A stretch of DNA of 64,000 bases from Meloidogyne chitwoodi (taxonomy: Eukaryota > Nematoda > Chromadorea > Rhabditida > Meloidogynidae), in the NCBI GenBank assembly GCA_015183035.1, contig JACZZP010000011.1, positions 1,860,001-1,924,000 of the forward strand, given 5' to 3'. Numbering within the stretch: position 1 is the stretch's first letter; each line of letters begins with the position of its first letter. Positions 2,547-57,367 of the stretch are shown here, in pieces. The position numbers were made by a program, and so were the translations under genes. Under the pieces are notes generated by a model, which did not search any database, was not told the DNA's origin, and worked only from the letters and a program-made list of their open reading frames with translations.

Positions 2547-4018
2547 ATGAGTACAGTTTACGTTAGTAATCTTTCTTCTCGTGCATCGGAGCATGATATT
2601 GAAGAAGTCTTTCGAGGGTTTGGACGAATTAGAAGCATTTCTCTCTATGTTGGATATTGCTTTGTTGTATGCTTTTACATAATTTTATCCTAATTTGAAA
2701 TTTAGAACTTTTTTGATCCTGAATCTGCCGAGAGCGCTATTAAACAAACAAATGGAAGTGACTTATGTGGACAACGTGTCATTGTAGATATTCCTTTTCG
2801 AGGTGGTGCTAGACTTGGTAGAAGGGGAGGATATTGCGGAAGAGGTGGATATTTTGGGTGAGAACATTTATTTAAATGGATAATATTTTTTACTTTAGTT
2901 CACGTGGTTTCAGTGCCAGTTGTGGTCCTTCGTCTCAAACTCATCCAGCGTTAAGCAATGAAGTTCGTAATGGAATAAAAAATTGTCTATTGGAAAATGG
3001 TTTTAAGAAATTTGAATTCATAAGTATTTTTTAATTTTAATTTTTACAATTTATTCTCTTTAGATAAATTAATCGTATCACATAAAGACTTTTATGGGCT
3101 TCCAGTTAAACAACAACAAAATATGGTTTTGGATAAAATACCACTTGATTTGAGGTTTTTTCTTGTACTTTTTGTAACTGAAAACAAATATAGAGATAAG
3201 ATTTCGCTTGAAACTCGACCTTTGGCTGATGTGCCGGAAAAAGAAGTAATCTTTTATTAACAATCTTTTGGATTTTTAAGATTATTTTCGTTTTAGATTC
3301 ACCCATTGAAATTAGATAGTAGTGCTGTTTTTGACGTAGCTAAAGTACCGTCCAACCCGCAACAAATGTTGGACAAGGGAATATGCCTCCTTAAAGAAGG
3401 AGATTGTGTGATGGGTGGCGAATGCGCCTGGTTGGCCGCGAATTTACAACTTAGTCGTTTTCTTCTTTATCACGATGTTATTGCTGACTCACACTTTCTT
3501 ACGCGTAAAATAGTGCATTTTTTGAAACAATTATCACCAAAAATTAATTCTCAATGGTTATTAGTCGAAAGGTAACAATTTTATAAAAATAATTAATCAT
3601 TAGTTTAAATATTTTAACATCTGTATGTTAAGTAATATTCGATTTTGTCGAATTTTTTGAAAAATATATTGGATTTACATATAAAAATGTGACAATAAAT
3701 TTTGAAATTTAGTGCACATAAGAATAGTTACTCGGATATGTTTGGTTTGGAAGATGTCGAAGATTTTTTAGTGGCCTCGGAATTGTTCTCCAATCTTATT
3801 TTTAAAATACACGAGAGCAGTCAATTCAGTCGAACTTCTTTGGAAGATTGGATTTTGAAGAGTAATACCCGTTTTAATCAATTGAAGAAGGTTATATTTA
3901 ATTTATATCAAAAAAGTATTTGTTTAAAATTTAGATTAAATTTTTGATCAATGGGAAAGAGCTAGATTTAGATGAGATATACGAAATTAAGGGTGGAAAA
4001 ATTGTGAAAAAAACTTGA
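2547..4018 (+). CDS. RRM protein fused to nematode PaREP1/HEPN-like core (family member A)
   Basis: Eight exons join without a frame break into 358 residues: 2547-2666, 2706-2857, 2899-3023, 3064-3154, 3194-3245, 3297-3571, 3713-3890 and 3935-4018. Residues 1-75 form an SR-protein-like RRM, with RNP2 VYVSNL and RNP1 GYCFVNFF split by intron 1, followed by a GRGGYFG-type glycine/arginine linker. The rest is the family core: a module with FYGLPVKQQQNMVLDKIP, then SLETRPL, then a helical region (~198-315) with KEGD, AWLAANLQL, ADSH and AHKNSY, and a short tail IKFLINGKELDLDEIY. The pattern GD...AxxAW...SH...HxNxY resembles archaeal PaREP1 (a HEPN-superfamily family); this is inference. An R-x4-H (RFLLYH) like the HEPN RNase motif is present here but not in the paralogues. 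An RNA-binding or RNA-cleaving role is plausible, not shown. Confidence 0.75.
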
Positions 4019-4115
4019 CTCTTATTAATTTGCCTTTGCTAATATCGAATATATCCATACGGTTTTCTTTTTTTTTTAAATTTATTTTCTATATAATTGA
4101 CTTTAAATATAATGA

Positions 4116-4180
4116 AAGAATGTCTGAAAATTACTTTTTGAAATAAAAATATTTTTAATTAAAAAAAGAAAGACATTCTT
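4116..4180. repeat. AAGAATGTCT/AGACATTCTT hairpin downstream of family member A
   Basis: Inverted repeat with arms AAGAATGTCT and AGACATTCTT around an AT-rich loop; a third AGACATTCT follows at about 4190. The same word pair lies about 100 bp downstream of family members F and G (48.44-48.52 kb and 54.41-54.48 kb), and one arm is near member E at 39.7 kb. Together with a shared TATACAAAAATAATGTTTTT stretch further on, this shows that the 3' flank was copied along with the genes. A role in 3'-end formation is possible but unproven. Confidence 0.55.
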
Positions 4181-4665
4181 GTTTTTATAGACATTCTTTT
4201 ATTCTCATTTCACTTACTTAAAATATTATATAGGCAATTATTTGACCATTGCTAACATAAGGAATTTTATTCGAATAGACTTATTATAAAAATTTCTTTA
4301 TAAAAAACAGACTCTCCAGATCAATTTTTTAGATCTCTTATTAAAAGTTTTTATTTACGTTCTCATTTTTTGTTTTATTTTTGTTGACTTATTTAATTTA
4401 TACAAAAATAATGTTTTTCTTTTAAAAAATGTTTTCAAATTTTTATGCTTATAAAAAATTATTTTATTGAAATTTATATAAATTTTTATTAACTTTGTTT
4501 GTTTTTCGATTTGGGGTAATCCTGCAGAATTGAGGTGACACTTGAAAATGTTTTTTATTTTTCAGTGGAAATTGGTATCTGGAGGTTATCGAAGGCGCTT
4601 ATTACGAAGCTGATATCAGTTTTTATTAAATCATTGATTTTATCTATGATTTTCATCAATCAGAC

Positions 4666-4767
4666 CAGGAATCCTGCCAAAAAAATCAATTCCCGATTTT
4701 CGTGAATCGGGAATTCCCGAAATTTTTTCATTCCCGATTTTCGGGAATCGGGAAAGCAGGATCCCTG
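4666..4767. mobile_element. Small palindromic element (MITE-like)
   Basis: About 100 bp with terminal inverted repeats CAGGAATCCTGC and GCAGGATCCCTG. The interior is three repeats of TTCCCGATTTTCG / CGGGAATCGGGAA in alternating orientation, so the single strand can fold almost completely. The CAGG termini suggest a hAT-type origin, but no clear target-site duplication is visible. Confidence 0.5.
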
Positions 4768-5960
4768 AAGTTGACCTATTCCACGGTTTTACGATTTTCA
4801 ATCGCCTTTAACTCATCTCTTAGTTATGTAAAACGTAAATGGTACAATTGGATTCAGCTCAACGAGACGAATCGAACAGTTAAATTTTATTCGCTTAAAA
4901 TATTTTTTTCAAAAAAATCAATTATTTGATGAAAAAGTGTTAGAATAGATGATTTTTTAATATTCTTCAGTAAAAATTAATTTAAAAATTTTTTTAATTT
5001 TTAGACTAAAAACTAGTTTTTGCGTTTTAGAGTTGATTTTTAATCCGATTTATTTAAAAAATAATAATTTTTAAATAATATTATTTTTTTGTATGTGATT
5101 TAATAAAAAAAGAGGAATTTTTAAAATTAAAAAAAAAATTGGCAAATAAATTAAATTAAAAAAAATTATTTTTTTTTAATTTAATAAAAAATCGATTGAC
5201 CATTTTAGCCTTCAATTTTATTATTTTTTTAAATAAATAAAATTTCTAAAAATTTTATTTATTTTTATTTAATGAATATTCTCCTTTTTATTTTATCAAT
5301 ATTTTTCTTCTCTTCTCTTATTTTTATTTTTTACATTTTTTAGTTATATTTTATTTAAAGTTTTTCTTTTTTTAATTTTTTTTTAATTTTTTTCTATTTT
5401 TTTTCTCATAAAAAAAATATTTTTTTTTCTTTTTTAAATTTAAATAATAAATAAAATAAAATAATTTATTAATAATAAAAAATATTTAAATTACTAAAAC
5501 ATCTTTTATGTCTCTCGTCAACGTGTTTCATACAACTCAAATATTTTATTTATTTTTATTACCAAATAAATTTTATTATTTAAAAAAGAATTAAAATAAA
5601 ATATTTTTATTTTATTTTTTAAACTTTTCTTTCTCTTCTCGTGATGTTTATATTTATTTTAAAAATTTTTTTGTCGGTAGACTAACAATAAAATTTAAAA
5701 AAATATTTACTTTGATAGATTAATAATTTTTTTTTAATTTTTTGAACAAAAGATTATTATTAATTAATAGAAAAAATTATTAAATTATTTTATTTTGATA
5801 GTTTTTGAATTTTTTTTTAATTTTTGGAAATTTTTTGAAAATTTTGAAATTTAGGTAAAATAGAATTAATATTATTTTTTTAATTTTTAAATAATTTTTT
5901 GATTTTTAAAAATAATTTTAATTATTTTTAAATCTTTTCAGTTATTTAAAAAAAATTAAA
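4768..5960. other. AT-rich intergenic stretch
   Basis: No convincing gene. Homopolymeric A/T tracts dominate. The word TTTTTTAATATTCTTCAGTAAAAATTAATTTA recurs, split here as TTAATATTCTTCAG and TAAAAATTAATTTA, at about 1200 and about 4955, so part of this spacer was copied from, or shares a source with, the spacer left of the eS25 pseudogene. Confidence 0.4.
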
Positions 5961-8900: not shown

Positions 8901-9311
8901 TTTAAATTGTCCAGACTCTAATGGAGAGGAGGGATGAAAACCTTAAAGTAAAAATGAGTAATTTGGTGGACTTATTGGTGGTTTATTAAAAATTTTGGTG
9001 TTTATTTCGATGAGGGCAGCCTGAATATCTCAGACTCTAAAGTGTTAAAATGTTCCAGACTCAAAGAACCTCAAGATAATTCAAATATTATTATTAAGGT
9101 TCAATATGCTCGTAAACGTCGTTGGTGCCCTCTTAACTCAACTGATGACCAAATAATAAATCAATTCTGTTTATTCCAACCTCCTTGTTCCTATGCTCTA
9201 ACAGAAATGTTTGATGACTGTGCAGTTGAAGCAGAAATACGTAACTACGAAAAAGATTTTGATTATGAAGAAGATGAATGTAAAACTCCTCAAAATTATT
9301 TTGAATATTAA
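5961..9311 (+). CDS. Nuclear hormone receptor
   Basis: A ligand-regulated-type transcription factor acting in the nucleus. Exon 1 (5961-6050) gives an acidic/Ser-rich leader. Exon 2 (from 6108) holds the first zinc finger (CLVCGQENAKMHYGVFACLGCK), and the next exons give GFFRRALKK (P-box region CLGCKGFFRR) and the second zinc finger ending SCRSCRLQKCLDVGMDPAAV, the standard end of the DBD. A long hinge (SPIRTRLSSIKEK) and a divergent ligand-binding domain follow (for example YRRLIAAVDWVELLSDRLGGLSIEDRIALVKSC, helix 3-5 signature, split across two exons), with later exons to 9311 (ending YFEY). Two introns contain CCCCATTTATTCGC MITEs. Exon edges in the 3' half (8.0-9.1 kb) are less certain. 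It belongs to the large divergent nematode NHR expansion; the exact orthologue was not identified. Confidence 0.85.
6253..6332. mobile_element. CCCCATTTATTCGCAA-family MITE in NHR intron
   Basis: Inverted arms ACCCCATTTATTCGCAA and TTGCGAATAAATGGGGT flank a short AT-rich centre. It lies wholly within the intron between the two zinc-finger exons. Other copies are at 6.7, 19.4, 20.2, 27.9, 29.1 and 44.3 kb, with one arm at 62.6 kb. Confidence 0.7.
6715..6829. mobile_element. CCCCATTTATTCGCAA-family MITE, diverged copy
   Basis: Arms GTCCCATTTATTCGCAAA and TTTGCGAATAAATGGGA around an AT-rich core, in the NHR intron after the DBD. Same family as the copy at 6253, with one base changed in each terminus. 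Confidence 0.65.
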
Positions 9312-9371
9312 AAAAAAAGATAATTAAATTGAACAAAAAATTTTATTTAAATTTTTTTAAATTTACTCAGA

Positions 9372-10801
9372 TTATTTTTCAACTCGAAAAATTCTCGGAT
9401 CATCCTCGACATCATCAATACTATAAACATCCTTAAATTCCTTCCAAACTCCGTCATGTAGGATTTTCAACTAAAATTTAAAAATAATTAAAATCTGTTA
9501 ACAATTTTAATTAAAATAAATAAAAAAAACATTAAAAATAACGAGATAACCTTCATCATATCCTCGTATCGACTTTCATTTTTTAACACCCACTTAATAA
9601 AATCTTCACGTTTAAAAACCTTTTTTTGGTCAATGTCGTATATTAAATTTGAAAAAATCTCTGCAGAACGTAGAGTGTCGTCAAAAACGGATTCTAATTC
9701 ATAAAAATCTTCTTCTTCATCCTTAGAATGCTCAAGAGCACTTAAATGTAAACATTTCTTAGATTATAATATATAAAATGTTACTGTTCTAAAAGCATCC
9801 AGCGAACACTAATTTTATTTACGAAGGTTTCATCGTTATCTTCAAAATTGCTGAGGAAGGAAATAACATTTTTTTTAAATAAACTGCAGTCAGCATCAAT
9901 TCCATGAGAAAGAAGGAACCAATTCAACTGCAGATTCCCACACATCCAAGCACAATATGAGGCTAAGGGTCCATTTTGTTTTTGTTCAATATAATAAACA
10001 CCAATATCTAAAATCGACTGGGGCGTGGCAGGCAAATCGAAGTCAATAATTACATTCTTCTTCAACTCTAAGCGGTGGATCTAAAACACAAAAATTATAT
10101 AAAAATCCGAAATGATCATTTATTAATAAAAAAAAGATACTGATTTATCATCAGAAAGTAAAAGAGGCTTGTTTTCCAAAACAAATTTATCCCTAAAATT
10201 TAGTTGTTTAATTAAATAAAGCATACAAAAATCAAACATTATATTATGTGGCAAATAGTAGTTCACAAAAAATCCATATCTATTAACTGGTAGTTTATTA
10301 AGTTTTTTGGAAACATAATCATAGTCGTATGATTCTAAAAATAAATTATATAAATTAAAATTATTAAATTTTACTTGGCTTTTCAGCTGCGGATGAACGA
10401 GAACCACTCTCTTTGGCATATGTCGGCCTCGTTTCCAATGAAATCTCGCCTCTATATTTAACTTAGTTACAAAAATTACATGAAACACAAACTTGACATC
10501 ATCCGGCAACTTAGCCATCACCAATTCCTGTTGTTTATGATAAGCCATGTGAAAAAATACTGGATCGGATACAATCACTTTCGCTCCTAAAATGAATTAT
10601 AAAAATTAAAATTATTAAATTCTTACTGGGTTTCTTGATTTCAACTGAATGAAAATCACCCAAACATTTACGTAAAATCTCACATTGATCATTAAATGTC
10701 TGGAAAATTAAATTTAAATGAATCAAATAGAAAAAAAAAACAAAATTAACCATATTTTTTTTCGAAGGACTAACTGCAGAAGACAATAATCTCCTCCGCA
10801 T
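9372..10801 (-). CDS. PaREP1/HEPN-like family member B with duplicated middle module
   Basis: Nine minus-strand exons join in frame to 342 residues: 10751-10801, 10627-10699, 10493-10586, 10375-10451, 10238-10334, 10141-10192, 9785-10080, 9551-9740 and 9372-9470. The N-terminus MRRRLLSSAVSPSKKNM matches members F and G (MRRSMFGMVRVCKRNM). The middle module occurs twice: residues ~42-98 (KVIVSDPVFFHMAYHKQQELV... then EISLETRP) and ~99-148 (DYVSKKLNKLPVNRYG... then DKFVLENKPLL), each split by a short intron at the same place and phase. The helical core (149-310) has IHRLELKK, TPQSILD, CAWMCGNLQLNWFLL and EIFSNLIYDI, but the SH and HxNxY positions are altered (CS, HALEHS). The tail is LKILHDGVWKEFKDVY. 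It is the only member with the duplicated module. Function unknown; RNA-related by family context. Confidence 0.75.
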
Positions 10802-11268: not shown

Positions 11269-14191
11269 CTACATATTTTCCTTATTGTATTGGTACCAAT
11301 CACACAACAGTTTCCATTCACCGTTTCTTTCTTGTTTTATCTAAAATTTAACATGTACTCGACAAAATAAATTAAAGAAAAAATAAAATAATAAATAAAA
11401 TTAGAACTGTTTAAAATAAATAACCTCCTTGTACATGTCATACGACAGACATTGGAGAAATTGTTCAGCATTAAACAGATTATTTTCATGAACGTGATAT
11501 AATATATTGCTACAAACTTCAGAAGCCATCAAAAAAAGATAAATATCCTTTAACTCCACATAAGTGTTTGAGTAAGAATTAGAATGAGCACTAAATTTAT
11601 AATGAAATTTTAGATAATATAAATATCTATAGAATACACAAATTTCTTTTTTACTGGAATGGCTACATGGTTTATGAATGGAGGGATTATATGCTTAATT
11701 GTTTGTAAGTTTTTTTTGATAATAGCCAACGAATGTTCAAAAATACTCTTAAGCATTGATGATGTTTTAAATAGAGCCATTAAGTTTTGAAAATTTTTAG
11801 GAAACTACCAAAAATCTATATTAAAAATAAAAATATATTACACTTGTAAATCCATCCAAACAGATCGGAGTTTAAGAGAAAGAAATGGATTGAGGCAGGT
11901 TCGAATATAAAAGATGGCCTGGTTTTGCATTTTGTGTGAACATGGCTCGAGTCCGTTATTATTCATTAGCCTTTTTAACATGAGAGATGAGCTCTTCCAG
12001 CAAAGATCAGACACGAGCCCACCTTTCTTCTGCTTATAGCGAAAAACTGCCTCGTTTAATAAAGATTGGGGACTTTCGTCCAAACTTTTCTCATTCGTCT
12101 TTGAAACATCAATTAATTTAACAGGTTGAATCTAAAAAAATAAAAGAAAAATGAGTATAAAGGTGACTCAAGTTTAAAAATGAAAATTCTGGTTCAAAGT
12201 AAAATTTTATGAAAATTTCTTATTTTAACAAAATTAAAGCGAAATGCTTGAGTAGCTCACTAATCTTTTGAAAATAAAACAAAAATTTTGAAAGATACTA
12301 TAAAACTTTCTCTATAAACAAAAGAATGAAATAACCTCTTCTACGTGATCGCAACCTGAATCAAGGCTACCTCTGAAACTTGTAATGTCAACATTTTCAT
12401 AACATTCTGAGAACATATGTCCATATTTTTTACCTTAATTTTCAAATTTCCAAACTAAAAAAATATTTCCATCCTTACAAGTGTAACACTGTACAACTCC
12501 TTTGCCACCTCCTCCATTACAGTTATGAGCATAATGCCCAGATTCTCCACAATTATAACCTGAAAGTTTAAAACATTTGAAAATCGGACATTGACATTTC
12601 CAATATAAAATCCCCATCTTCTAAAAATGTTACAAAGGCTTAAACATTATCCACCCGAATCAAGAAACTATTTAAAAAAATCATACATTTGCTGCCTCCT
12701 CCACTACCACGATCACGACGACCGTCTTTTCCTCCATCAGAGTCATGTGCGTGATTTCCTCCAGTGGTGTGAACATTAACGCCTTAGTTTAAAAGAAAAT
12801 ATTAAAATTAAAAAAAATAAACCTCCACTACGTGGATCATCTATGGCGGAAGAATTTTTATTGCTGGATGATGTTGAAACTTGAAGAGCTGGGCGTTTCC
12901 TAATAAATTGATCAAAATGAAGATGGGAATCAGTAAAAACAAACCAAATACGAATAAGTTCTTGCTTTGCATTACTAGAATTATAATTAAAATATAAATT
13001 AGCTAGTAAGTATATATAGAAAATAAATAACCTTTCTGCCTCACGAAGCTTAGGCTCTCTGTCACCAGTCATTAAACCAATAGTCTGATCGTCACATTTA
13101 GCCAAACCTTCTTTCAGCAAAAATTCGGCAATGTCACCTCTAGGGTGGAGCACACTTGCAATGAAGTTTTGATTTGCAGTACTCTCCAAAATAATCTTGA
13201 CATCTCTCTGAAGAAGGCGAATTTCAACATAATGTTTAGCTTCTTCTCCATATTCTTCAGGCTTTACTTCATTTCCAATAGTAAGTCTAGGCGCCTTAAT
13301 AAAAAATAATAATAAATTTATAACTTAACATTAACCTCAATTCCACTAAGTGAAATTGTTATGTACTCAAATGAAGGCAGTAAAAATGCTCTAAAAGTGC
13401 TTCCACTAATCACCTTTAATTATTAATTTTATCTGTAAAGTTCAGAAAACGAACCTCTTCAATAACAGCATCAACCGGGTTTCCTCCATATTTTGTAACT
13501 AAAGAACTGGGAGCACCAAGGATCCATTGAATATTTCTGACGTGTTTTGATGATTCGTCCCCAGAAAATTTTCCTTTCTTTCCATTTATTGCATTCTGTT
13601 GCAAGTTCAAGAGTTTTTTTGTGAATTCACTTAAAAAAGACAAAGAAAAACTTTAAATTCAAAAAATAAAACAAACTCATTCAGTCGTCGATTGCGAGTT
13701 TTCAGTAGTCCAAAAGAAACTCCGGACTCGCTGATGTTTTCAGCGTCTTAAATTCATTTTTAAAAATATTATAGCTGAAATGTTACTACTAAAAATGCTA
13801 CCAATGTAAATGTGTCCATATTCGCGTCCTGAAGTGGCAATATATTCTCGCACAAAAGTAACGGTTTTTCCGACTAACTTTAGGCGTATGAATTCCCTCG
13901 CCTCCCAGGCATACGGCTAAAATTTCAATAATAATTTTCCTTTAAATTTATTAACCTCATCCATAGTAGCCTCTGAATTTTGGGTTGGATGTTTGGCAAG
14001 TTTTGGTGCAATTACATTGTATAAATAAACGGTAATTTCAGTTGGCGGACTACCAGAATCTACTGAAAATTGGAATACAACAGAGTCGCCGCTCAATACC
14101 TACAAGAGAACATATTAAATACGTATCATTTATTAAAGTAGCGAACTTGTTTAACAAATCCCTTTTTAGTATTGCTTTGTTGAAGAGACAT
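11269..14191 (-). CDS. Chimera: Tudor-SN-type nuclease domains + CCHC zinc knuckles + PaREP1/HEPN-like core (family member C)
   Basis: Fourteen exons, all phases consistent, give 614 residues; the start is 14189-14191. Residues ~16-310 match the first two staphylococcal-nuclease repeats of Tudor-SN/SND1: FVKQVLSGD, PYAWEAREFIRLKLVGK, GREYGHIYIG, KHVRNIQW, LLPSFEYITISLSGIE and FLLKEGLAKC. The third and fourth SN repeats and the Tudor domain are absent. A Gly/Arg-rich linker leads to two CCHC knuckles, C-x2-C-x4-H-x4-C at 380-393 (CYNCGESGHYAHNC) and 404-417 (CYTCKKYGHMFSEC); each is split by an intron after the first base of a Cys codon. From ~450 comes the family core: SPQSLLNEA, KKGG, SDLCW, PCSH, AHSNSYSN, EVCSNILYHVHEN and the tail IKQERNGEWKLL. 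SN domains in this context bind or cleave RNA and CCHC knuckles bind RNA. An ORF at 11655-11804 inside one intron could be an extra exon. Confidence 0.75.
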
Positions 14192-15094
14192 AGAACTTTT
14201 CATTATTTTTTAACTATCAGCGTGTCTAATCTTTAATAAAAAATGAAAGATTTAAAATTAATTATAAGCAAACAAAAACAAAGCTGGATAAAATTATTCC
14301 AAATTAGTGTTAAAAATTCTGTTAAAATGGAAGTCATCACTTTAAACATAAACGCAAAAAGGGAAAATGAAAAGGTGAGAATGACATAATAAACGGTAAA
14401 AAGTTTGCCAATATGGAGAAAACGGACAAAATGCCAATAGGCAGAGAATGAACAAAAGATATGCAAAATTAGAGCTTTTTAGTGCTAACAAGGACATTCT
14501 ATCAAAACTAAGAAAAAATAAATGTATAAATTAGTACGGAAGATGAGAATCATATATTTATTTAAAATGTGTTGTCTTTATTTTAACGCATCAAAATAGT
14601 TATGTTTCTGTCGTCTCCTCATTTTGAAGCATATTCAAGTTCCATTAATTTTTTCAAAGTTCAGTCTTCTGATCAAAACCTCCAAATTCTTTTAAAATTA
14701 AAAAAATAATAAATAAACAGAATTTACTTAAGAGATGAAAAAATAATAAATTTTAACATGAAAGCATAGAACATTTTGTTTAAAATGAACGAAAATAAAT
14801 AAATATAATTATACATAAATATTATAGGCGTAAACTAATTTTGAGTTGTTGGCAAAAAATTAATAAATTTCTTTTTATAAAAAGACAAAAATCCCTTTAG
14901 CATTCTAAAAACTTTTTAAATTTTTATAGGAGACAGAATATCTACGCCTATAAAATTTATTTTAGTCTAGTGATATGACTTTAAAAAAAATTATTTTACA
15001 ATTAATCAGTTGAGGTGTTCTTAACAATTATTTAATAAATTAATTATTTTTACTCATTTTTAAAGAGTAAATACCCAAAAATATTTTTTCTTTA
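14192..15094. other. Intergenic stretch
   Basis: Space between the FKBP stop (15095) and the start of member C (14191). No credible coding exon, RNA gene or repeat family was found. The minus-strand side nearest 14191 should contain the promoter of member C. Confidence 0.4.
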
Positions 15095-19951: not shown

Positions 19952-20231
19952 AAAAAAATTTTTTTTGCATTTTTTTAAATAGGAAATAACAGGTTTTTTT
20001 AATTATAAAAAGAAGACATTTAGATATTATATTTTTAAATAAATATTTTTTGAGCAGATAAGTGGGGTTTTTTAAAAAAACGCATCCCCCCAAAATATAT
20101 TTTTTATTCAGTCAATATATTTTATTAATTGCTCATTAATGGCCTAGTACTTTAAAATTAAATAAAAATAATACTTTAAAACCTATAAAAAACTATGTTT
20201 TTCAAATAATGATTATATCAATTTTTCAAAT

Positions 20232-38215: not shown

Positions 38216-39525
38216 ATGCGTCAATTTTTGCTCGCAATAAATGCTTCGAAAGGATTTACCGTTAGTTTTATTTTTTAGTTGTAAAATTCACGAAAATTTA
38301 TTGTAATGTGTCTTATTTTTAAGATTTTTTGTCGACATCGAATGCTAGGATGTTATGCTCGTTGCCAGAAACCAAATACTCGAAATCAGATTTCTTTGGG
38401 AAATTGTTTAAAAAATAGTGGTTTTGACAAATTTGCTATTATGGTGCCAAGTATGAATTTTATTGTTTATTTCTATAATTTATTTTAGAATCAAAAGTGA
38501 TTATCCATGACAAACAATTTATTGGAATGCCTATCGACAAACAAAAAATGCTTGTTATGGACTCTTTTCCTAAAAATATCAGGTTTTGTGATTTTAAGAT
38601 TTGTGCTTAATTTAACTAACTTTTAGAAGTAAAGTTGATTTGGATACAAGGCCAATTCCATTTCCTGGTGATGAACAATCGGTAATTTTTATTTTAATAG
38701 AATAAATTTAATTAATTTCTTCTAGATTTGCCGTTTAGAACTTAAGAAATGCATTCCTTTGGTAAAACAAAACGTGAATACGACTCCTCAAGCAATCATA
38801 GACGAAGCCTCTTACCATTTTGAAAGAGGTGATGGATTACTGGCTTCAGACGCAGCATGGTTATGTTCGTCGCTTCAGTTGCGTTTGTTCCTTCTTGCTT
38901 ATGACGTAGAGGCTGATAGCCATTCGCTTAAACGTGAAGTAGTGGCGTTTTTGAAGAATTTGTCTTCCGATCTTCCTTCTAAATTTCTTATTTTAGAAAA
39001 GTAACAATTATATAAAAATAATCATTAATTTAGTATATTTATATAATTTGATGTTGTCGATATTTATTGAACAATATCAGAGATATTATTATCTATAAGT
39101 GTTAATAGGTTTTAAAATTTTATATTTTAGTTGTCATGAAAATTCGTATCTAGATGTCCAAAATTTGGTGTACATTGAGGAATTTTTAAAGGCGGCTTTG
39201 GAGTTTTGCAATTTGATTTGTGAAATAAATGACAGCAAATCATTCAATCCCCTCGATTTGGAGAAATGGGCAGTTGATTCTAACACTAAATTCCATAAAA
39301 TGCAACAGGTTTATTTCTTAAAATTATTTATAAACTTGTTAATTTAATGATTATAATATTTTAATATTAAAAAAATTTATATTAAAAACGTTTGTTTAAA
39401 TTTAGCTGAAATTTAAAATAAATGGGAGTTGGTGGAAACTCAATGAATTATATAAAAAAGAGAAAGGTAGTGGCATTTTGAAGAAAATTGATTTCGAAAA
39501 TATTCCGACAAAAATTTCCTTATAA
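38216..39525 (+). CDS. PaREP1/HEPN-like family member E
   Basis: Seven exons with consistent phases give 297 residues: 38216-38260, 38324-38450, 38489-38582, 38627-38681, 38726-39000, 39131-39308 and 39406-39525. It shows the family pattern in order: MRQFLLAIN leader, RNQISLGNCLKNSGFDKF, the module KVIIHDKQFIGMPIDKQKML, VDLDTRPIPF, then the helical core (107-258) with CRLELKK, TPQAIIDEASYHFERGDG, AAWLCSSLQLRLFLL, EADSHSLKREVVAFLKNL and CHENSYLD, and the tail LKFKINGSWWKLNELY. SH and HxNxY are both kept, as in member A; exons of 94, 275 and 178 nt match A, B and/or F exactly. It lies between the MULE copy and UTP6 in a segment whose flanks match the 48-51 kb copy closely, while the gene itself is strongly diverged. 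Function unknown, inferred RNA-related. Confidence 0.75.
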
Positions 39526-45149: not shown

Positions 45150-45183
45150 ACAAAACAAAATGATAAATATTTTTTCACTTCTT

Positions 45184-47515
45184 CTATTCAACATCTTCAA
45201 TAGCTGAAGGTTTTATATGCATCACATTACTTTTATATTCCATTGTTGATTTTAATCCTTTTCGATTAACCCGGTTAATATCTGCAGGATTTAATGTTAT
45301 CAATTCTGGTTGAATCTAAATAAAAAAATTAAATTCTGTTAAAACTTTGATTTTTAAAAAATAAATTTCTAGCTTCAAGAGCTCAAAATATAATTTAATT
45401 TTTTTTTTAAATCTCTAAAATTTTCTAAATTCATTTTTTGAAAATTTTCTTTAAAAATTAATTTCCATAAAATCTAACCTTGTCAAGTAACATTCGTATT
45501 TCCCTCTCTTTTCTTTGCTGTTTTGATTCAAATGGATTTGCAAGTAATGAATCAAAATTTGCCTGTCCCGCTCCTGGTATTAAAAGACTTTCAAATCCAC
45601 AGGTATGTCCTACACCCAAAACATCTTCATATGGACAAAATTGTAAATTTGTAATTGTTCCTTCACATTTATGAACTAAATATGGTGTACAAGAAGATTG
45701 GTTCAAATGAGGGTTTTTTAGTACCTTAAAAAAGATTTTTTAATTAATAAAAAATCAGAGGAAAGACCCAGACTAATTTAATAAAAAATAAAATAAGAAT
45801 AAACCTGTAAATGTTTTCCAAAATTAACAGCCAAAAAATTTCTTTGACTAAATGCTACATGTGTATAATTCAATAAAGGAGAAGAATAAACAGCAATTTC
45901 ATTAAAATTATTTCTCAAGTCCCAAATACGTAATTTATTATCTAATCCACTTGTTGCCATATAATGTCCAGTCTGATCTATATCAATCCCAAGAATTGGA
46001 CCTTTATGTGCAAACATTTCAATTAAAGGTTTTTGACTATTTGGTGACCACATTGTTACTACACCACGTGAATTTCCACCAACAATTATTGCATTTGATT
46101 GATTTTGGGTTAAAACATCTAAGACACCACATTTACTAGGAAATGAGGCAATCTAAAAAATAATTATAATATTTTAATAACAATTAAAAAATAAACCTGT
46201 TTGCCAACAGAAACATCAAGCCAGGTAAGAAATGAGTTACCACTCTAAAATTAAAAATAATAATAAATATTTTATAAAAAGTCTCTATTTTATTACTTAA
46301 AAATCATTTGAAACGTAATAGGTTAAGTTAAAAACGAAAACTCTCAAACGGAATCGAACCAAGCTCTACTGAGGGGGAAAACCAGAAGGTTTCCACTACA
46401 CCACAACTACTCAACAAGAATTTTAATATTTAATTATTAAGTGGATAATAAAATATTTATTTAAAGCTCCAAAGCCTAAATTTAATTTGAGAATTTCCAG
46501 AATAAATTTAAAAAAAAATACCGATCCAACAAGCAAAAAATGCCTAGGCAAAAATTGAAGTCTTCTAATATCAAACATTGACTTTATACAATGCAATTCT
46601 GTCCCATTTTTGTCATAAATTCGTAGCCAACGTTTTTGTCCTACTGCAAACATTGTTTCTGTGTGAAGCCATCTATTTTATTTTAATAAATTATTAAAAA
46701 ATAAATTATAAACTGTATATCCTTGACAGATTCCATTACATTAATTTCAGTCATCAAGTCTTTAGTCATCCAATCAAAAGCAGCAATATGTCCTTTACGA
46801 CCACCAAGTAACATAAAGCGTCCATTTAATGTGTAGTCAATATTATAAGGCCCAAAACGAAGATCAAGAGAAAAATGCTTTAAAAAAATTTTTATAATTG
46901 CGAATTCAAAATTAAAAAAAAATTTCCCAATTTTATTTTGAGGTATTATTTCTCTAAGAAAACCTCACAATTAACATCAAAAATATAAATTTTATAAAAA
47001 AATACTTTAGTAGCACTAGCAATGTCAACAGCATCACAAATTTCTGTTTGTTTTGTTAAGCATGTAGGGACACCCTCATCAGCTTCAATAAAACTTTAAG
47101 AAACAAATAAAAATAATTTAAAAATTAAAAAACCCTTCTTGTTGAGTAGCAAGAAGTTCAGCACGTGCAGCCCTCTCAACTCGTTCAAAAAATCGGCCCT
47201 TCTTTTTAATTAACCTCTTCTGGGCAATTATTGTTTTTGCCTTCTCCTAAAAATAAAAAATAATAAGAAAACCTCAAAAAGTTAAAAAATCTTCTCATTT
47301 TAATCACTCACAGGAATTAAAAGTTCAGCCCCAGTGTCATATTCTTTCAACTTTTCTTTTGGAATATCCAATTTTGAAGGAAATTTGTCAGCTTTTCCTC
47401 TAACCAAATCATTAGGAAGAGACTTTCTTCTCTTAAGAATATTTTTTTTCTTTCCATTAGAAAAACGTTTTAAATTATTTTCTTTAAAGTTTTGTTGCTT
47501 CTTAATTTCATTCAT
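45184..47515 (-). CDS. WDR46: WDR46/UTP7 (BING4), SSU-processome WD-repeat protein
   Basis: A nucleolar scaffold of the small-subunit processome. The minus-strand start at 47513-47515 gives [20 protein letters not shown] with a basic N-terminus, then [30 protein letters not shown] (split by an intron), DVIDAVDIA-type strand [91 protein letters not shown] and the diagnostic BING4 C-terminal region [40 protein letters not shown], ending [10 protein letters not shown]. All exons appear intact. An intron contains a tRNA-like relic (46.34 kb). The 3' part of the gene from about 45509 is the left edge of a 5.9-kb tandem duplication. The DV... strand wording above is approximate; other motifs are read directly. 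Confidence 0.88.
46340..46411 (-). repeat. tRNA-like relic in WDR46 intron
   Basis: The minus strand reads GTTGTGGTGTAGTGGAAACC (A box) and CTTGGTTCGATTCCG (B box). It recalls tRNA-Glu/Gly-type 5' halves, but the T and acceptor stems do not close. Duplicated at 52312-52382. Confidence 0.5.
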
Positions 47516-47852
47516 TTTTAATCAATATTTATTATGTCAAAGAAAAATTTTAAAAATATTTAAACGAGAAAAATAAAATTAAAATAATCGAACCAACGAA
47601 ATACAAAAAAATCAATGCTCAAAAGTTTGAAATATTTATTAAGAAAGTCAGATGGAGATCAGTGAAACAAAAATAAACTATGAAAAAGAAAGAATAATTG
47701 AAGTAAACGAATATGAGTCTTTTCATCATTCGCGCTATTTAAAAAGAGATTTCTTCTACAAACATAAAAAAATGACTAAAATACAAAAGTTAAAATAATT
47801 CCATACCAACTTTCAAGGTCTGAATAAATAAAATAACCAAAAGAATGAAAAC
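47516..47852. other. WDR46 upstream region with duplication breakpoint
   Basis: Minus-strand promoter region of WDR46. Similarity to UTP6 intron 1 (GTTTTC...TTTTGGTTATTTTA) stops near 47.835 kb, which marks the breakpoint of the inverted duplication. Confidence 0.45.
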
Positions 47853-47993
47853 CTGTTTACAAAGTTTGTATTCAAAATTACGACAATCCTTTATAAATTC
47901 ACAGACTTCCTCTGAAGAAAATAATTGAACCAATTTAAGCTGTTCAAAGACGGGAAGCAATTCTTCTAATGATTTTTCTACAAACTCTGCCAT
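47853..47993 (-). pseudogene. UTP6 exon 1 fragment
   Basis: A 141-bp exon encoding MAEFVEKSLEELLPVFEQLK through FEYKLCKQ with an intact GT donor, nearly identical to exon 1 of the gene at 40053. No further UTP6 exons follow; read-through ends at a stop within 20 codons. A fragment carried along by the inverted duplication. It could still supply a promoter and 5' leader for something downstream. Confidence 0.8.
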
Positions 47994-48604
47994 TCCTAAA
48001 AAATCAAAAATATTTATTTAATAAATTGTAAAAAATATTTTGTTTAAATAAAAAACATTTTTAGAATAAAAACAAAGTTAATAAACATTTATTTAAATTT
48101 ATATATATTTATCAAATTTATTTTTTATAAAAATTTGAAAACATTTTTAAAAAAGCTTTATTTTTGCTTTTAAAATCTCAACAATAATAAAAAAAATGGA
48201 GAATATAATGTTGGTAAAACTCTTTAAAGTCTAGAGATCTATTATTTTGGAGGCGGTTTACCAAAAAATAGCAAAGAAAAAAACAAAGTATAGAAATTAT
48301 ATGAATTAAGTCTTGAACTTTAAATACATTAAAGTAATAATATTATTTCCTCTTTGGAACAAAAAAATTTCTGAGCAATGGTCTTATATAATATAAAATT
48401 TTTGTCTAGGCAAGAGTGAAAGAACAAATATAGAAGCAACAAAAAAAAAAGAATGTCTAAATTTTTTTAAATAGAAATATTTTTATTATTAAAAATTATA
48501 ATTCTTAGACATTCTTAATAAATTTAAAAGTCAATTGGTTTGAGTCATTTTGTTTTAGAAATAATTTTTTATTTAAATAATACTTTTCTGAATCCACAAT
48601 GAGC
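47994..48604. other. 3' flank of member F
   Basis: AT-rich. Contains the AGAATGTCT/AGACATTCT hairpin pair at about 48.44-48.52 kb and the stretch shared with the flanks of members A and E (AATGTTTTCAAATTTTTATA). No gene recognised. Confidence 0.45.
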
Positions 48605-49959
48605 TTATTTATTCTTAAGTCCTCGAATTAAGCGTTCTGCTTCCTCTACATCCTTAAGTAACTCTCTTCTCTCAATCCATTGACCCTCGTGTAGAACTTT
48701 TAACTAAAATTTAAACATAAATTTGAAAATTAATTAAAATCTAAAAATGATAGTTTATAAAAAATATTAAAAAATAACCTTCCTTGCATAACCACGTTCC
48801 ATAAATTTGATCAAATCTTCAACACGGAACAGCTTGCTATTGTGCAGTTTTACAATACTATTGGAAAAAGTCACCGCATCTTCAATCCAGCCTTTCGCAA
48901 AAATCAGAGCATGGTCATTGTTATATCCGTTCGAGTGCCCACTTTAAAATTGTAAAGAATATAAAATTTTAAATAATAACGATTGCATAAATGTTTGAAA
49001 ATAAATAGTCAAAATTGAAATATTTTAAGGTAAAATTTTACGTTTCCAATGAACTCCAAGTAGTTCTTATATCCTTAGACAACTTTTCATCTTTGAGAAT
49101 TTCATTAGCAATGAGAATAATCGAAGCAACAATATTAGAATTTATACTATGTGAATTATTTCTTAGGCCATAAAAAAAGAGGAAGTTAGCAAGAACTAAA
49201 CTCGCTGCATGCCATGAAGCATTGCTGGACATGGATCCTTTTCTTTTAGCCAAAAAAACCAAAGCTTGATCGAGGTGCATCTGTGGCGTGATTTTCAAAC
49301 GTGAACCAAATTTGATATTTTGAATATCTTTTATCTCTAAACAACGGATCTAAAAGAAAATTATTTAAGAAAAATGTTTAAAATGTAAAGCGTTCAATAA
49401 TTTTCAAAAAATTACTTTACACATACAAAAAATTTTTTTGAAAAAAACTATGATTCATTGAGATCATACTGAATTAGACCCAAGTAAAAAAATACAAAAG
49501 ACCATTTTTAGTATTTCGAAAGTAATAAAAAAAATTACTGAGGTGTCCTCTTCATCCATAATTGGTAAAGTCTCCAAAACAATGTTGTTTCTAAATTTTA
49601 ATTTTTCAATTAATCACAAAAATTAAAAAACAAACTTTATAATTTCTGGCGAATTTTCCAATATAAATTCTTGCTGCCGATGAATTGGCATACAGTTAAA
49701 CACTGGGTCTGCTACTTCAACTTTGGTTTCTAAAATGAATCATAAAAATTAAAGTTATTAAATTTCTACTTTGCTCCTTAATTGAAACATCTTTAAACAC
49801 ATTAAAACACTTCTTTAAAAATTGGTGTCGTAAATTTATCGTCTGGAAAATTAAAATAAAAAAGTTAAAATTGAATTTTGTGAAATCAATTTATTGAAAA
49901 AATAAAATAACCATGTTTCTCTTACAAACTCTAACCATGCCAAACATTGAACGCCGCAT
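48605..49959 (-). CDS. PaREP1/HEPN-like family member F
   Basis: Seven minus-strand exons join to 278 residues: 49912-49959, 49770-49842, 49636-49729, 49539-49590, 49042-49349, 48779-48941 and 48605-48703. Order: MRRSMFGMVRVCKRNM leader, LRHQFLKKCFNVFKDV, the module KVEVADPVFNCMPIHRQQEF, NNIVLETLPIM, the core (~90-246) with IRCLEIKD, TPQMHLDQALVFLAKRKG, ASWHAASLVLANFLFFYGL, NNSHSINSNIV and GHSNGYNN, and the tail LKVLHEGQWIERRELL. SH and H-x-N-x-Y are conserved. Exons of 73, 94, 52 and 99 nt equal those of member B. Member G, 5.97 kb away, is its near-identical tandem copy. Function unknown. Confidence 0.78.
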
Positions 49960-50137
49960 ATCTAATTTGCTGTTGAAACAAATGTAAACAAAAATTATTA
50001 CACTAAAATAAAATTAAGTGAAATTATTAATGAAAATAATAAATAAAAATGAAAAATAAACATATTAAAATCAAATTAATTAAAATTAAATATTTATTTA
50101 AAAAAATCGACCAGTAAATTAAACTGAATAAAAAAAT

Positions 50138-51412
50138 TTAAAAATTAATAAAATGAGAAAAAGCAGTTAAAAATTCAATAGGATCTTTAGGTCCTCCAAC
50201 ACATCTCAAAACGTTCAAAAGATTTTGATTGTCAAGTCTATATTTGGGTCTACTAAACATTTGAACTGCAGCACCAGAATATATACGAATAGCAATTGTA
50301 TCAACACGAGCCTTTAATTTAAAGAAATTAAATAAAATTCAATCTCCAAATCATGTAAGAAGTACTTTGTCACAGACAAAATCAAATTTACATTTTATCT
50401 AGACAACAATTCTCTCGTCAAACTTTCCCCAAAAACTATTAACCCTATAATATTAAAAAGAAACCTGTTTATCCAAAAGTGCCCTAACAAGATTGTAAGG
50501 ATTCGAAGAATGCCTATGAAATATTCCAGCAAAAGTATTATGCCAAGATTCAATAGAATTTGAAGTTTTAGGCATTTGTTCCAATGTAATATCTTTATTG
50601 TTCCAAATAGTTGAAGGATATCTTGGAGGCATTAAATCTCGTCCACCCCAATTTCTTTCCATATAATCAATAAAAGCAAAATGTGAACTTTCTGAGTCTC
50701 CATTGCTAAATACTTCAAGAAATATTTGAGCCAATTGTCGAAAATATGCACAAATATATACTGAAAATGTGGAAATTTTAGATAAATAAAAGTAAAAATA
50801 AACCTGGATCAACAAAAGTTAAACAAACAAACATTTTCAAATAATTATGAAATCCATCTTCTTCTTTATATTTTAATTCCCAACCAAGTTCTTGAATCTT
50901 TTTCCAAATTGATTCCTATAAATATTAATAGAGTTTCTTAAAAGAAAAACCTTAAAATGAAAAAAACATCCTTGAATTATTGCAAAAGGGAAAGCAGCTC
51001 TTAAAGCTTGTTCTTCAATCTTTTCAAAGTCAATAATTATTGTTTGTGGACGAAAACCAGGATTTATTTCTTCAACTTTAACAAACAAAAGTTCCAAAGA
51101 TTTGATATATGAATCACAAGTTTTTGATGGAATTAATGCATAAATGAAGGGAAGAATGAATGTTCGACCAAAACGGCCATGAACAATCTTTAATGAATAT
51201 AATCAAAGAATTATTTTAAATTAAAAAAGAAATACCCAAAGATGATACAAAGGTTGTTGAGCATTATTCTCATTTTTAAAAGTTCCGTCAAAAAACTAAA
51301 CAACACAACTTGCTAATCTAGCAACATCTTTTCTAGAGCCCAAAAGAATTATTCTATCATTAGGCCAGTATCTTCCAAAATAAAATCTTCTTAAAGTCCA
51401 GTTTTTGTTCGA
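50138..51412 (-). pseudogene. 5'-truncated MULE transposase copy (unit 1)
   Basis: Nearly identical to the gene at 35967-38027 but lacks the FLYWCH exon and begins at the EQL/RTKTGLQEDF region, directly joined to a WDR46 exon. The Trp codon in the DVWFFDGTF motif is changed to TAG, so the first catalytic block is preceded by a stop. The intron acceptor AAAG, lost in the plus-strand copy, is present here. Ends at TAA 50138-50140. Confidence 0.8.
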
Positions 51413-53485
51413 CGTAATTGTTCTTTTCTCTGCTGTTTTGTTCAAATGGATTTGCACGTAATGAATCAAAATTTGCCTGTCCCGCTCCTGGTATTAAAAG
51501 ACTTTCAAATCCACAGGTATGTCCTACACCCAAAACATCTTCATATGGACAAAATTGTAAATTTGTAATTGTTCCTTATCATTTATGAACTAAATATGGT
51601 GTACAAGAAGATTGGCTCAAATGAGGGTTTTTTAGTACCTTAAAAAAGATTTTTTAATTAATAAAAAATCAGAGGAAAGACCCAGACTAATTTAATAAAA
51701 AATAAAATAATAATAAACCTGTAAATGTTTTCCAAAATTAACGGCCAAAAAATTTCTTTGACTAAATGCTACATGTGTATAATTCAATAAAGGAGAAGAA
51801 TAAACAGCAATTTCATTAAAATTATTTCTCAAGTCCCAAATACGTAATTTATTATCTAATCCACTTGTTGCCATATAATGTCCAGTCTGATCTATATCAA
51901 TCCCAAGAATTGGACCTTTATGTGCAAACATTTCAATTAAAGGTTTTTGACTATTTGGTGACCACATTGTTACTACACCACGTGAATTTCCACCAACAAT
52001 TATTGCATTTGATTGATTTTGGGTTAAAACATCTAAGACACCACATTTACTTGGAAATGAGGCAATCTAAAAAATAAATATAATATTTTTATAAAAATTA
52101 AAAAAAACCTGTTTGCCAACAGAAACATCAAGCCAAGTAAGAAATGAGTTACCACTCTAAATTAAAAAAAATAATTTAATAATTGAAAGGTATTTTTTAA
52201 AATAAAAAAATAGTTTTTTATTTAAAATAATATATATTTTAAAAATAAAGCCTCTATTTTATTGCTTAAAAATTTTTGAAAGGTAATTGGTTAAGTTAAA
52301 AAAGAAAACTCTCGAACGGAATCGAACAAAGCGCTACAAACGGGAAAAACCAGAAGGTTTCCACTACACCACAACTACTCACCATGGACAGTAATATTTA
52401 TTTATTAGGTGGATAATAAAATTTTTATTTAAAAGCTCGCCTAATTAATTTGAGAATTTCCACCCGAAATAAATTAAAAAAAAATACCGATCCAACAAGC
52501 AAAAAATGCCTAGGCAAAAATTGAAGTCTTCTAATATCAAACATTGACTTTATACAATGCAATTCTGTCCCATTTTTGTCATAAATTCGTAGCCAACGTT
52601 TTTGTCCTACTGCAAACATTGTTTCTGTGTGAAGCCATCTATTTTATTTTAATAAATTATTAAAAAATAAATTATAAACTGTATATCCTTGACAGATTCC
52701 ATTACATTAATTTCAGTCATCAAGTCTTTAGTCATCCAATCAAAAGCAGCAATATGTCCTTTACGACCACCAAGTAACATAAAGCGTCCATTTAATGTGT
52801 AGTCAATATTATAAGGCCCAAAACGAAGATCAAGAGAAAAATGCTTTAAAAAATTTTTTATAATTGCGAATTCAAAATTAAAAAAAAATTTCCCAATTTT
52901 ATTTTATGGTATTCTTTTCTAAGAAAACCTCACAATTAACATTAAAAATGTATATTTTATAAAAAAAATACTTTAGTAGCACTAGCAATGTCAACAGCAT
53001 CACAAATTTCTGTTTGTTTTGTTAAGCATGTAGGGACACCCTCATCAGCTTCAATAAAACTTTAAGAAACAATTAAATAAAAATAATTTAAAAATTAAAA
53101 AACCCTTCTTGTTGTGTATCAAGAAGTTCAGCACGTGCAGCCCTCTCAACTCGTTCAAAAAATCGGCCCTTCTTTTTAATTAACCTCTTCTGGGCAATTA
53201 TTGTTTTTGCCTTCTCCTAAAAATAGAAAAATAATAAGAAAACCTCAAAAAGTTAAAAAATCTTCTCATTTTAATCACTCGCCGGAATTAAAAGTTCAGC
53301 CCCAGTGTCATATTCTTTCAACTTTTCTTTTGAAATATCCAATTTTGATGGAAATTTGTCAGCTTTTCCTCTAACCAAATCATTAGGAAGAGACTTTCTT
53401 CTCTGAAGAATTTTTTTTTCTTTTCATTAGAAAAACGTTTTAAATTATTTTCTTTGAAGTTTTGTTGCTTCTTAATTTCATTCAT
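51413..53485 (-). pseudogene. WDR46 pseudogene (unit 2), chimeric with MULE exon
   Basis: A copy of WDR46 lacking its last exon. Exon 1 has a one-base deletion in the A-rich stretch after RFSN, breaking the frame, and the HKCEGTITN segment reads HK-stop. The 3' end is joined at QQRKE to the MULE sequence EQLxRTKTGL. Confidence 0.8.
52312..52382 (-). repeat. tRNA-like relic, unit 2 copy
   Basis: Duplicate of the relic at 46340-46411 with several substitutions (for example the B box is preceded by a changed stem); it sits in the equivalent WDR46 intron. Confidence 0.45.
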
Positions 53486-53815
53486 TTTTAATCAATATTT
53501 ATTAAATAAAAAAAAATTTTTTTTGATTTAAACGAGAAAAATTAAATAAATAAAAGAATCAACAAATTAATAAAAATATTAACAAAAAAGTTTGAAACAT
53601 TTATTAAAAAATCCAGATGGAGATCAGTGAAATAAAAAGAAATTAAGAAAAAGAAAGAATACGTAAACGAATATAAGTCTTTTAATTATTCGCAATATTT
53701 AAAAAAGAGATTTCTTTCACGAACATAAAGAAAAATATGACTAAAATACAAAAGTAAAATAATTAAATAACAACTTTCAAGGTCTGAATAAATAAAATAA
53801 CCAAAAAAGGAAAAC
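53486..53815. other. Spacer in unit 2 between WDR46 pseudogene and UTP6 exon copy
   Basis: Corresponds to 47516-47852 with scattered substitutions and small indels. Nothing else recognised. Confidence 0.4.
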
Positions 53816-53956
53816 CTGTTTACAAAGTTTGTATTCAAAATTACGACAATCCTTTATAAATTCACAGACTTCCTCTTGAGAAAATAATTGAACCAATTTA
53901 AGCTGTTCAAAGACTGGAAGCAATTCTTCTAATGATTTTTCTACAAACTCTGCCAT
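53816..53956 (-). pseudogene. UTP6 exon 1 fragment, unit 2 copy
   Basis: 141 bp with open frame starting MAEFVEKSLEELLPVFEQLK and ending FEYKLCKQ, near-identical to 47853-47993, again without further UTP6 exons. Confidence 0.8.
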
Positions 53957-54565
53957 TCTAAAAAATTGAAAAATATTTATTTAATAAATTGTAAAAAATA
54001 TTTTGTTTAAATAAAAAACATTTTTAGAATAAAAACAAAGTTAATAAACATTTATTTAAATTTATATATATTTATCAAATTTATTTTTTATAAAAATTTG
54101 AAAACATTTTTAAAAAAGCTTTATTTTTGCTTTTAAAATCTCAACAAATAAAAAAAATGGAGAATATAATGTTGGTAAAACTCTTTAAAGTCTAGAGATC
54201 TATTATTTTGGAGGCGGTTTACCAAAAAATAGCAAAGAAAAAAACAAAGTATAGAAATTATATGAATTAAGTCTTGAACTTTAAATACATTAAAGTAATA
54301 ATATTATTTCCTCTTTGGAACAAAAAAATTTCTGAGCAATGGTCTTATATAATATAAAATTTTTGTCTAGGCAAGAGTGAAAGAACAAATATAGAAGCAA
54401 CAAAAAAAAAAGAATGTCTAAATTTTTTTAAATAGAAATATTTTTATTATTAAAAATTATAATTCTTAGACATTCTTAATAAATTTAAAAGTCAATTGGT
54501 TTGAGTCATTTTGTTTTAGAAATAATTTTTTATTTAAATAATACTTTTCTGAATCCACAATGAGC
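53957..54565. other. 3' flank of member G
   Basis: Copy of 47994-48604, including the AGAATGTCT/AGACATTCT pair at about 54.41-54.48 kb. Almost no divergence from unit 1 in this stretch. Confidence 0.45.
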
Positions 54566-55930
54566 TTATTTATTCTTAAGTCCTCGAATTAAGCGTTCTG
54601 CTTCCTCTACATCCTTAAGTAACTCTCTTCTCTCAATCCATTGACCCTCGTGTAGAACTTTTAACTAAAATTTAAACATAAATTTGAAAATTAATTAAAA
54701 TCTAAAAATGATAGTTTATAAAAAATATTAAAAAATAACCTTCCTTGCATAACCACGTTCCATAAATTTGATCAAATCTTCAACACGGAACAGCTTGCTA
54801 TTGTGCAGTTTTACAATACTATTGGAAAAAGTAACCGCATCTTTAATCCAGCCTTTTGCAAAAAACAAACCATGGTCATTATTATATCCATTCGAGTGAC
54901 CACTTTAAAATTGTAAAGAATATAAAATTTTAAATAAAAATGATTGCATAAATGCTTGAAAATATAGTCAAAATTGAAATATTTTAAGGTAAAATTTTAC
55001 GCTTCCAATGCAATCCAAGTAGTTCTTATATCCTCAGACAACTTTTCATCTTTGAGAATTTCATTAGCAATAATACAGATCGAAGCAACAATATTAGAAT
55101 TTATACTATGTGAATTATTTCTTAGGCCATAAAAAAAGAGGAAGTTAGCAAGAACTAAACTCGCTGCATGCCATGAAGCATTGCTGGACATGGATCCTTT
55201 TCTTTTAGCCAAAAAAACCAAAGCTTGATCGAGGTGCATCTGTGGCGTAATTTTCAAATGTGAACCAAATTTGATATTTTGAATATCTTTTATCTCTAAA
55301 CAACGGATCTAAAAGAAAATTATTTAAGAAAAATGTTTAAAATATAAAGCGTTCAATAGTTTTCAAAAAATTATTTTACACATACAAAAAATTTTTTTGA
55401 AAAAAACTATGATTCATTGAGATCATACTGAATTAGACCCAAGTAAAAAAATTTACAAAAGACCATTTTTTAGTATTTCGAAAAGTAATAAAAAAATAAA
55501 AAAAATTACTGAAGTGTCCTCTTCATGCATAATTGGTAAAGTCTCCAAAACTACTTTTTTTCTAAATTTTAATTTTTCAATTAATCACAAAAATTAAAAA
55601 ACAAACTTTATAATTTCTGGCGAATTTTCCAATATAAATTCTTGCTGCCGATAAATTGGCATACAGTTAAACACTGGGTCTGCTACTTCAACTTTGGTTT
55701 CTAAAATGAATCATAAAAATTAAAGTTATTAAATTTCTACTTTGCTCCTTAATTGAAACATCTTTAAACACATTAAAACACTTCTTTAAAAATTGGTGTC
55801 GTAAATTTATCGTCTGGAAAATTAAAATAAAAAAGTTAAAATTGAATTTTGTGAAATCAATTTATTGAAAAAATAAAATAACCATGTTTCTCTTACAAAC
55901 TCTAACCATGCCAAACATTGAACGCCGCAT
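54566..55930 (-). CDS. PaREP1/HEPN-like family member G (tandem copy of F)
   Basis: Same seven-exon structure as member F with an intact reading frame, 278 residues. Differences cluster: in the fourth exon KNNIVLETLPIMDEED becomes KKVVLETLPIMHEED-like, and in the core IILIANEIL becomes ICIIANEIL and WSSLET becomes WIALEA. The intervening introns are almost unchanged. The SH and H-x-N-x-Y positions are kept. An intact frame beside decayed WDR46 and MULE copies in the same unit suggests that this gene is the part of the unit under constraint. Confidence 0.75.
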
Positions 55931-57352: not shown

Positions 57353-57367
57353 TGTTCGACGTAATTG

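What the first reader, a model, noticed from the sequence alone, without database searches (positions are those of the whole stretch)
2547..55930. Six-member nematode gene family with a PaREP1/HEPN-like core tied to RNA-binding modules
Members A (2.5 kb), B (9.4 kb), C (11.3 kb), E (38.2 kb), F (48.6 kb) and G (54.6 kb) share an ordered set of blocks: K-x-h-x...F-x2-(M/L)(P/A)...Q(Q/K)...P; LE/LD-x-x-P; (S/T)PQ-x3-(L/I); G-x(3-6)-(S/A)-x2-(A/C)W-x5-LxL; (A/N/P)-x-SH; (A/C/G)H-x-N-x-Y; a Trp/Gly tail. The GD/AW/SH/HxNxY series is what I know from archaeal PaREP1, a HEPN-superfamily group. A has an RRM; C has SN nuclease repeats and CCHC knuckles. That combination suggests RNA recognition plus HEPN-type action, possibly antiviral or transposon control. 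The fold assignment and function are inference; the homology among the six is directly visible.
Basis: partly seen in the sequence, partly recalled or inferred. Interest (0 to 1): 0.9.

Follow-up and report, generated by a model that had tools for sequence, protein, structure and literature searches.

The report
Archaeal-type HEPN fused to RNA binders
A genome that is likely a root-knot nematode's carries at least 15 related genes whose shared core shows sequence kinship to a microbial RNA-toxin-type domain (HEPN, PaREP1 type) and is predicted to have its fold; in two of the six window genes the core is predicted to be spliced to RNA-binding parts, so these proteins would likely serve to recognise particular RNAs such as those of viruses or transposons.

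The parts
2547..4018 (+). Gene A, 358 aa, 8 exons: RRM + Gly-rich linker + PaREP1/HEPN-like core
   Evidence: splice model open, GT-AG introns; Pfam RRM_1 E 1.6e-15, residues 4-64
2547..2857 (+). A: RRM-encoding exons 1-2 (SR-factor-like RRM; nearest non-family copies at C9:632.5 kb and on C23)
   Evidence: SR-factor likeness is recalled
3297..3890 (+). A: HEPN-domain exons (exon, 141-nt intron, exon)
   Evidence: AF2 model, HEPN-type structural matches, hhalign with PaREP1
9372..10801 (-). Gene B, 284 aa, 7 exons, core only; lacks H-x-N-x-Y and SH
   Evidence: no Pfam domain at E<=0.1
11269..14203 (-). Gene C, 603 aa, 15 exons: Tudor-SN-derived SN region + Gly-rich + two CCHC knuckles + C-terminal part of core
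   Evidence: Pfam SNase 5.1e-21 (2 stretches), zf-CCHC 2.6e-7 (2 stretches) on an earlier model 15 residues longer; final model
12838..14187 (-). C: stretch copied from the 5' half of a Tudor-SN gene (79% DNA identity, introns included); homology stops inside an exon
   Evidence: blastn against L197; the C2 copy goes on to further SN and Tudor-like exons (read by eye)
11425..12131 (-). C: HEPN-domain exons
   Evidence: alignment A2
38216..39525 (+). Gene E, 297 aa, 7 exons, core only
   Evidence: no Pfam domain at E<=1
48605..49959 (-). Gene F, 278 aa, 7 exons, core only
   Evidence: no Pfam domain at E<=1
54566..55930 (-). Gene G, 278 aa, 7 exons, near-copy of F (15 residues differ)
   Evidence: F/G dN/dS 0.36 from 16 N and 11 S changes; full-length G not scanned on its own

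Best explanation
The six genes are paralogues of a family of at least 15 whose shared core is profile-related to microbial PaREP1 proteins and is predicted to fold as a HEPN helical bundle, and they likely act as RNA-recognition proteins of a defence or RNA-surveillance system. Shown here: homology among members, shared intron phases of the gene models, profile homology to PaREP1, RRM sequence in A, SN and CCHC sequence in C. Predicted: the splice models that join these parts, and the HEPN fold. Inferred: the HEPN core binds RNA, probably as a dimer as HEPN proteins commonly do (recalled), and because the R of Rx4-6H is absent from every member it more likely holds than cuts RNA; the RRM, or the SN region with zinc knuckles, supplies target recognition or recruits other RNA-silencing factors; lineage-specific multiplication would widen the range of RNAs recognised. 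Untested: any target, partner, tissue, or antiviral or anti-transposon effect.
Confidence: 0.5

Rival explanations
1. Active RNases: the core would still be a catalytic HEPN endoribonuclease using the conserved H-x-N-x-Y histidine with another basic residue, and the RRM or CCHC parts would aim it at target RNAs for cleavage.
For: H, N and Y each kept in 13 of 15 members and W in 15 of 15; K or R at W+8 in 9 of 15; PMC3710099 notes that PaREP1/8 lacks R but keeps H and other basic residues.
Against: R of Rx4-6H absent in 15 of 15; the lysine of the S-E-K motif is absent in 15 of 15 and B and the C3:1574-kb member lack the H.
Confidence: 0.25
2. House-keeping role, for instance in mitochondria: core-only members start with acid-free, basic N-termini that resemble mitochondrial targeting sequences and would act in organelle RNA metabolism.
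For: First 18 residues of B, E and F have 5, 2 and 5 basic and no acidic residues; five paralogue N-termini looked at also have no acidic residue.
Against: Helical moments are mixed (0.17-0.49 in five tested); no predictor was run; paralogue first exons are not splice-checked; the criterion is weak, since C's Tudor-SN-derived start is also acid-free over 18 residues; A starts directly with its RRM.
Confidence: 0.12
3. Helical-bundle convergence: the core is not a HEPN domain and the PaREP1 similarity is chance.
For: Foldseek alone finds nothing at E<=0.001; 14 of 15 members have no listed Pfam PaREP1 hit up to E 10, though HMMER's filters drop most weak ones.
Against: Profile-profile score 74.2 against at most 18.8 in 200 shuffles; W and H-x-N-x-Y fall in register; HEPN-type chains lead the structural list.
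Confidence: 0.03

Closest known systems
Caenorhabditis PaREP1/8-type HEPN expansions (Anantharaman et al. 2013, PMC3710099; abstract and passages seen)
   Same: eukaryotic, PaREP1-type HEPN core, lineage-specific multiplication, R of Rx4-6H not conserved, fusion to an RNA-related domain
   Different: there the reported partner is an inactive LAF-1/Vasa-like ATPase; here RRM, or Tudor-SN half plus CCHC knuckles. Sequences could not be compared directly: no nematode collection here
Archaeal/bacterial PaREP1 family (PF05942)
   Same: profile-level homology; W, SH and H-x-N-x-Y landmarks in most members
   Different: A-S-E-K-x-W-G-A-A motif degraded; introns; added N-terminal and C-terminal parts; RNA-binding fusions in some
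Tudor-SN (TSN)
   Same: C carries a 79% DNA-identical copy of the 5' half of the C2 TSN gene
   Different: the later SN and Tudor-like parts are replaced by Gly-rich, CCHC and HEPN-like exons

Membership tests
HEPN superfamily | all-helical up-down HEPN bundle | tested here: met
   predicted model; HEPN-type chains are ranks 1-7; a prediction, not a solved structure
HEPN superfamily | Rx4-6H endoRNase motif (in the majority of HEPN domains) | tested here: not met
   R absent 15/15, H present 13/15; PMC3710099 says PaREP1/8 lacks conserved R too
PaREP1/8 branch of HEPN | profile homology to PaREP1 proteins | tested here: met
   hhalign with shuffle and reversal controls; local HMM, 9 of 15 below E 0.01
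PaREP1/8 branch of HEPN | Pfam PF05942 curated score reached by a single member | tested here: not met
   best 21.8 bits against cut-off 24.4; 1 of 15 members hit at all
PaREP1/8 branch of HEPN | A-S-E-K-x-W-G-A-A motif | tested here: not met
   W 15/15, K before it 0/15, small residues after it; my PaREP1 set was chosen by this motif, so its constancy there is by selection
PaREP1/8 branch of HEPN | L-H-x-N-F-Y-E region | tested here: met
   H-x-N-x-Y with H, N and Y each in 13/15, aligned in register; B lacks it
Caenorhabditis PaREP1/8 expansion | orthology or common origin with this family | not testable with these tools
   no nematode sequence collection on hand
Tudor-SN | four SN domains plus Tudor domain | tested here: not met
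   C has two SNase stretches and no Tudor match

The most novel reading that the evidence does not exclude
A nematode lineage turned an archaeal toxin domain into a gene repertoire in which one HEPN core is recombined with interchangeable RNA-recognition modules (RRM, zinc knuckles, Tudor-SN half), forming an innate RNA-sensing or RNA-silencing arm against viruses and transposons.
Probability: 0.3. Interest if true: 0.85.

Novelty: new variant of a known kind. Interest (0 to 1): 0.58.

Why it matters
It gives a concrete gene set, with boundaries and motif states, to test a 2013 proposal that nematodes reuse a prokaryotic conflict domain as RNA receptors. If the genome is a root-knot nematode, the domain is not restricted to Caenorhabditis, so the transfer may be older than that genus, and joining to RRM, CCHC and Tudor-SN pieces points to RNA as the target.

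Tried and rejected
Pfam PF05942 against the whole genome: no match at E<=0.001. Protein-database searches with two family alignments gave nothing (at E<=0.1, at E<=10); PDB sequence searches gave only weak rows (1, 2). Rfam at gathering scores: 0 matches in the window. The N-terminal module of the core (A from 3066) was modelled with the HEPN part; its confidence was too low to read (blocks 28-70), while most HEPN blocks again scored 89-96. A tree of the 15 HEPN regions separates C10 from C3 members but does not resolve whether the RRM or the CCHC fusions arose once each. F/G changes gave no sign of positive selection. That A is really two genes is less likely because a second RRM lies upstream of another paralogue, but no transcript decides it. 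Species: size and contig number recall Meloidogyne chitwoodi (my memory); one paper search did not confirm it, so nematode and species are inferred. Literature, listings only unless said: PaREP1 with HEPN 2 papers, both seen as passages (outline and abstract of PMC3710099); HEPN with Meloidogyne 1 unrelated; HEPN with nematode and RRM 3; others (15 of 24 listed; 11 of 12; 2; 1) showed no title or abstract about RRM or CCHC fusions. The term RRM does not occur in the main text of PMC3710099.

Rows dropped: one search found 118 open frames of 60-400 aa with the A-S/T-E-K-x-W-G-A-A motif; a separate pass without that length limit kept 95 that also had a downstream H-x-N/S/C motif and enough length, so the 95 are not a strict part of the 118.

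Full report
What was checked. I read the open frames, linked them by GT-AG introns that keep frame and ended with six models that start with ATG, end with a stop and have no stop inside. The last five introns of A, B, E, F and G have the same phases (1,2,0,2,0); C, which has only the later part of the core, shares the last three (0,2,0). With the matches found in one search with E (B 1.9e-12, A 2.2e-12, G 1.7e-4, F 2.0e-4, C 4.4e-4) this makes chance resemblance untenable.

Family size. Six queries against the window's own genome (47.48 Mb in 30 contigs) together return 15 loci, and the last two queries added none: ten on C3 (1.566, 1.575, 1.587, 1.863 A, 1.870 B, 1.872 C, 1.899 E, 1.909 F, 1.915 G, 1.947 Mb) and five on C10 (1.420, 1.426, 1.436, 1.542, 1.545 Mb) (both HEPN exons of all 15 collected). 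The tool says that such counts are lower bounds. F and G lie in two copies of one tandem duplication (95.4% identity over 5,200 and 97.8% over 758 aligned bases); their coding change is constrained (dN/dS 0.36; 16 non-synonymous, 11 synonymous; 15 residues differ).

PaREP1 kinship. Of A, B, E and F none has a Pfam domain at E<=1 apart from the RRM of A (B in part there, in full at E<=0.1; G's full length was not scanned). Of 15 HEPN regions scanned, one (C10:1.426 Mb) hits PF05942 PaREP1 at E 1.9e-4, 21.8 bits against a cut-off of 24.4, over residues 23-118 and profile positions 9-110 of 115; with 15 tries that is about 0.003. To go further I collected microbial PaREP1-like open frames by a motif pattern and built a profile of 95. 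It scores 9 of 15 members below E 0.01 with the search space set to 24,736; 14 of 15 are listed, B is not. Profile against profile, hhalign gives probability 97.8, score 74.2 and 108 aligned columns; 200 column shuffles of the family alignment reach at most 18.8 and the reversed alignment 14.0. W and H-x-N-x-Y fall in register with W and L-H-x-N-F-Y-E of PaREP1. The E-value there is for a single comparison, and the microbial set was chosen with motifs, so its own constancy at those motifs is partly selection.

Active-site state. Across 15 members W is kept in 15, H, N and Y of H-x-N-x-Y in 13 each, the SH histidine in 10, and a basic residue at W+8 in 9. No member has R at the positions of Rx4-6H; 20 of 95 microbial rows do. 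B lost H-x-N-x-Y outright and the C3:1.575-Mb member lost the H. PMC3710099 says of PaREP1/8 that R is not conserved while H is, and proposes that the Caenorhabditis versions may be RNA receptors rather than RNases (passages). I follow that reading as the likelier one; it is inference.

RNA-binding modules. A starts with an RRM (Pfam 1.6e-15), in the model spliced in frame to the core. The paralogue at C3:1.575 Mb has a similar RRM upstream (Pfam 1.3e-15 for its joined exons), which makes an artefact of my gene model less likely. C begins with a copy of the 5' half of a Tudor-SN gene: 79% DNA identity, introns included, to C2:886 kb; the match ends at window 12838, inside an exon that runs on into other sequence, while the C2 gene continues with further SN and Tudor-like exons (read by eye). 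Pfam finds two SNase stretches (5.1e-21) and two zinc knuckles (2.6e-7) in C (that model was 15 residues longer than the final one). The C3:1.947-Mb paralogue has several knuckle-like pieces right upstream of its HEPN exon (read by eye; one pattern match in an uninterrupted frame). Pfam found no module in B, E and F, G is a near-copy of F, and the other seven outside members show none in the 1.0-1.5 kb read by eye upstream. No transcript supports any model.

What is known. PaREP1/8-type HEPN domains, thought to be of crenarchaeal origin, were reported in Caenorhabditis with expansions in C. elegans and C. remanei, some fused to an inactive LAF-1/Vasa-like ATPase, and it was suggested that they may defend the germline (PMC3710099, passages). 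PMC2701414 (one passage) describes PaREP1 in Thermoproteales, with fusions of HEPN and RHH domains. My searches found no report of the domain in root-knot nematodes or of RRM, CCHC or Tudor-SN fusions (mostly listings, and the library holds open-licence papers only). The species is not given; a Meloidogyne genome is my inference from size, contig number and base composition.

Verdict. It is a new variant of a known kind: same sort of core as the Caenorhabditis case, different partners. The function is still a proposal.

Noticed in passing
window 45500-51400 and 51400-57400: Tandem duplication of about 6 kb carrying a WD40 exon, a UTP6-like piece, the HEPN gene (F or G) and a possible transposase remnant (no Pfam hit); parts recur inverted around E (36.9-40.2 kb).
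   Followed up: partly
N-termini of B (10801), E (38216), F (49959), G (55930) and five outside paralogues: First residues are basic and free of acidic residues (MRRRLLSS.., MCRLFST.. in paralogues), resembling mitochondrial targeting sequences (recalled pattern; no predictor run).
   Followed up: partly
L077-L196 (genome contigs): PaREP1-like open frames occur in Dehalococcoidia/SAR202/Chloroflexota records as well as archaea, some in tandem within one locus (L121, L142, L153), although PMC3710099 lists the family for archaea.
   Followed up: no
window 33937-34593 +: Open frame with Pfam DUF1280 (E 5.8e-26).
   Followed up: no
window 137-538 +: Open frame with two UBA-type stretches.
   Followed up: no
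window about 17140-15100 -: Gene that reads like an FKBP plus TPR protein (read by eye, not searched).
   Followed up: no
C10:1.426 and 1.436 Mb (L018, L012), upstream of the HEPN exon: Both paralogues share a near-identical upstream open frame (MESAITGISSCAALNLVSGHSKGRRPPKRHFD..) of unknown nature.
   Followed up: no
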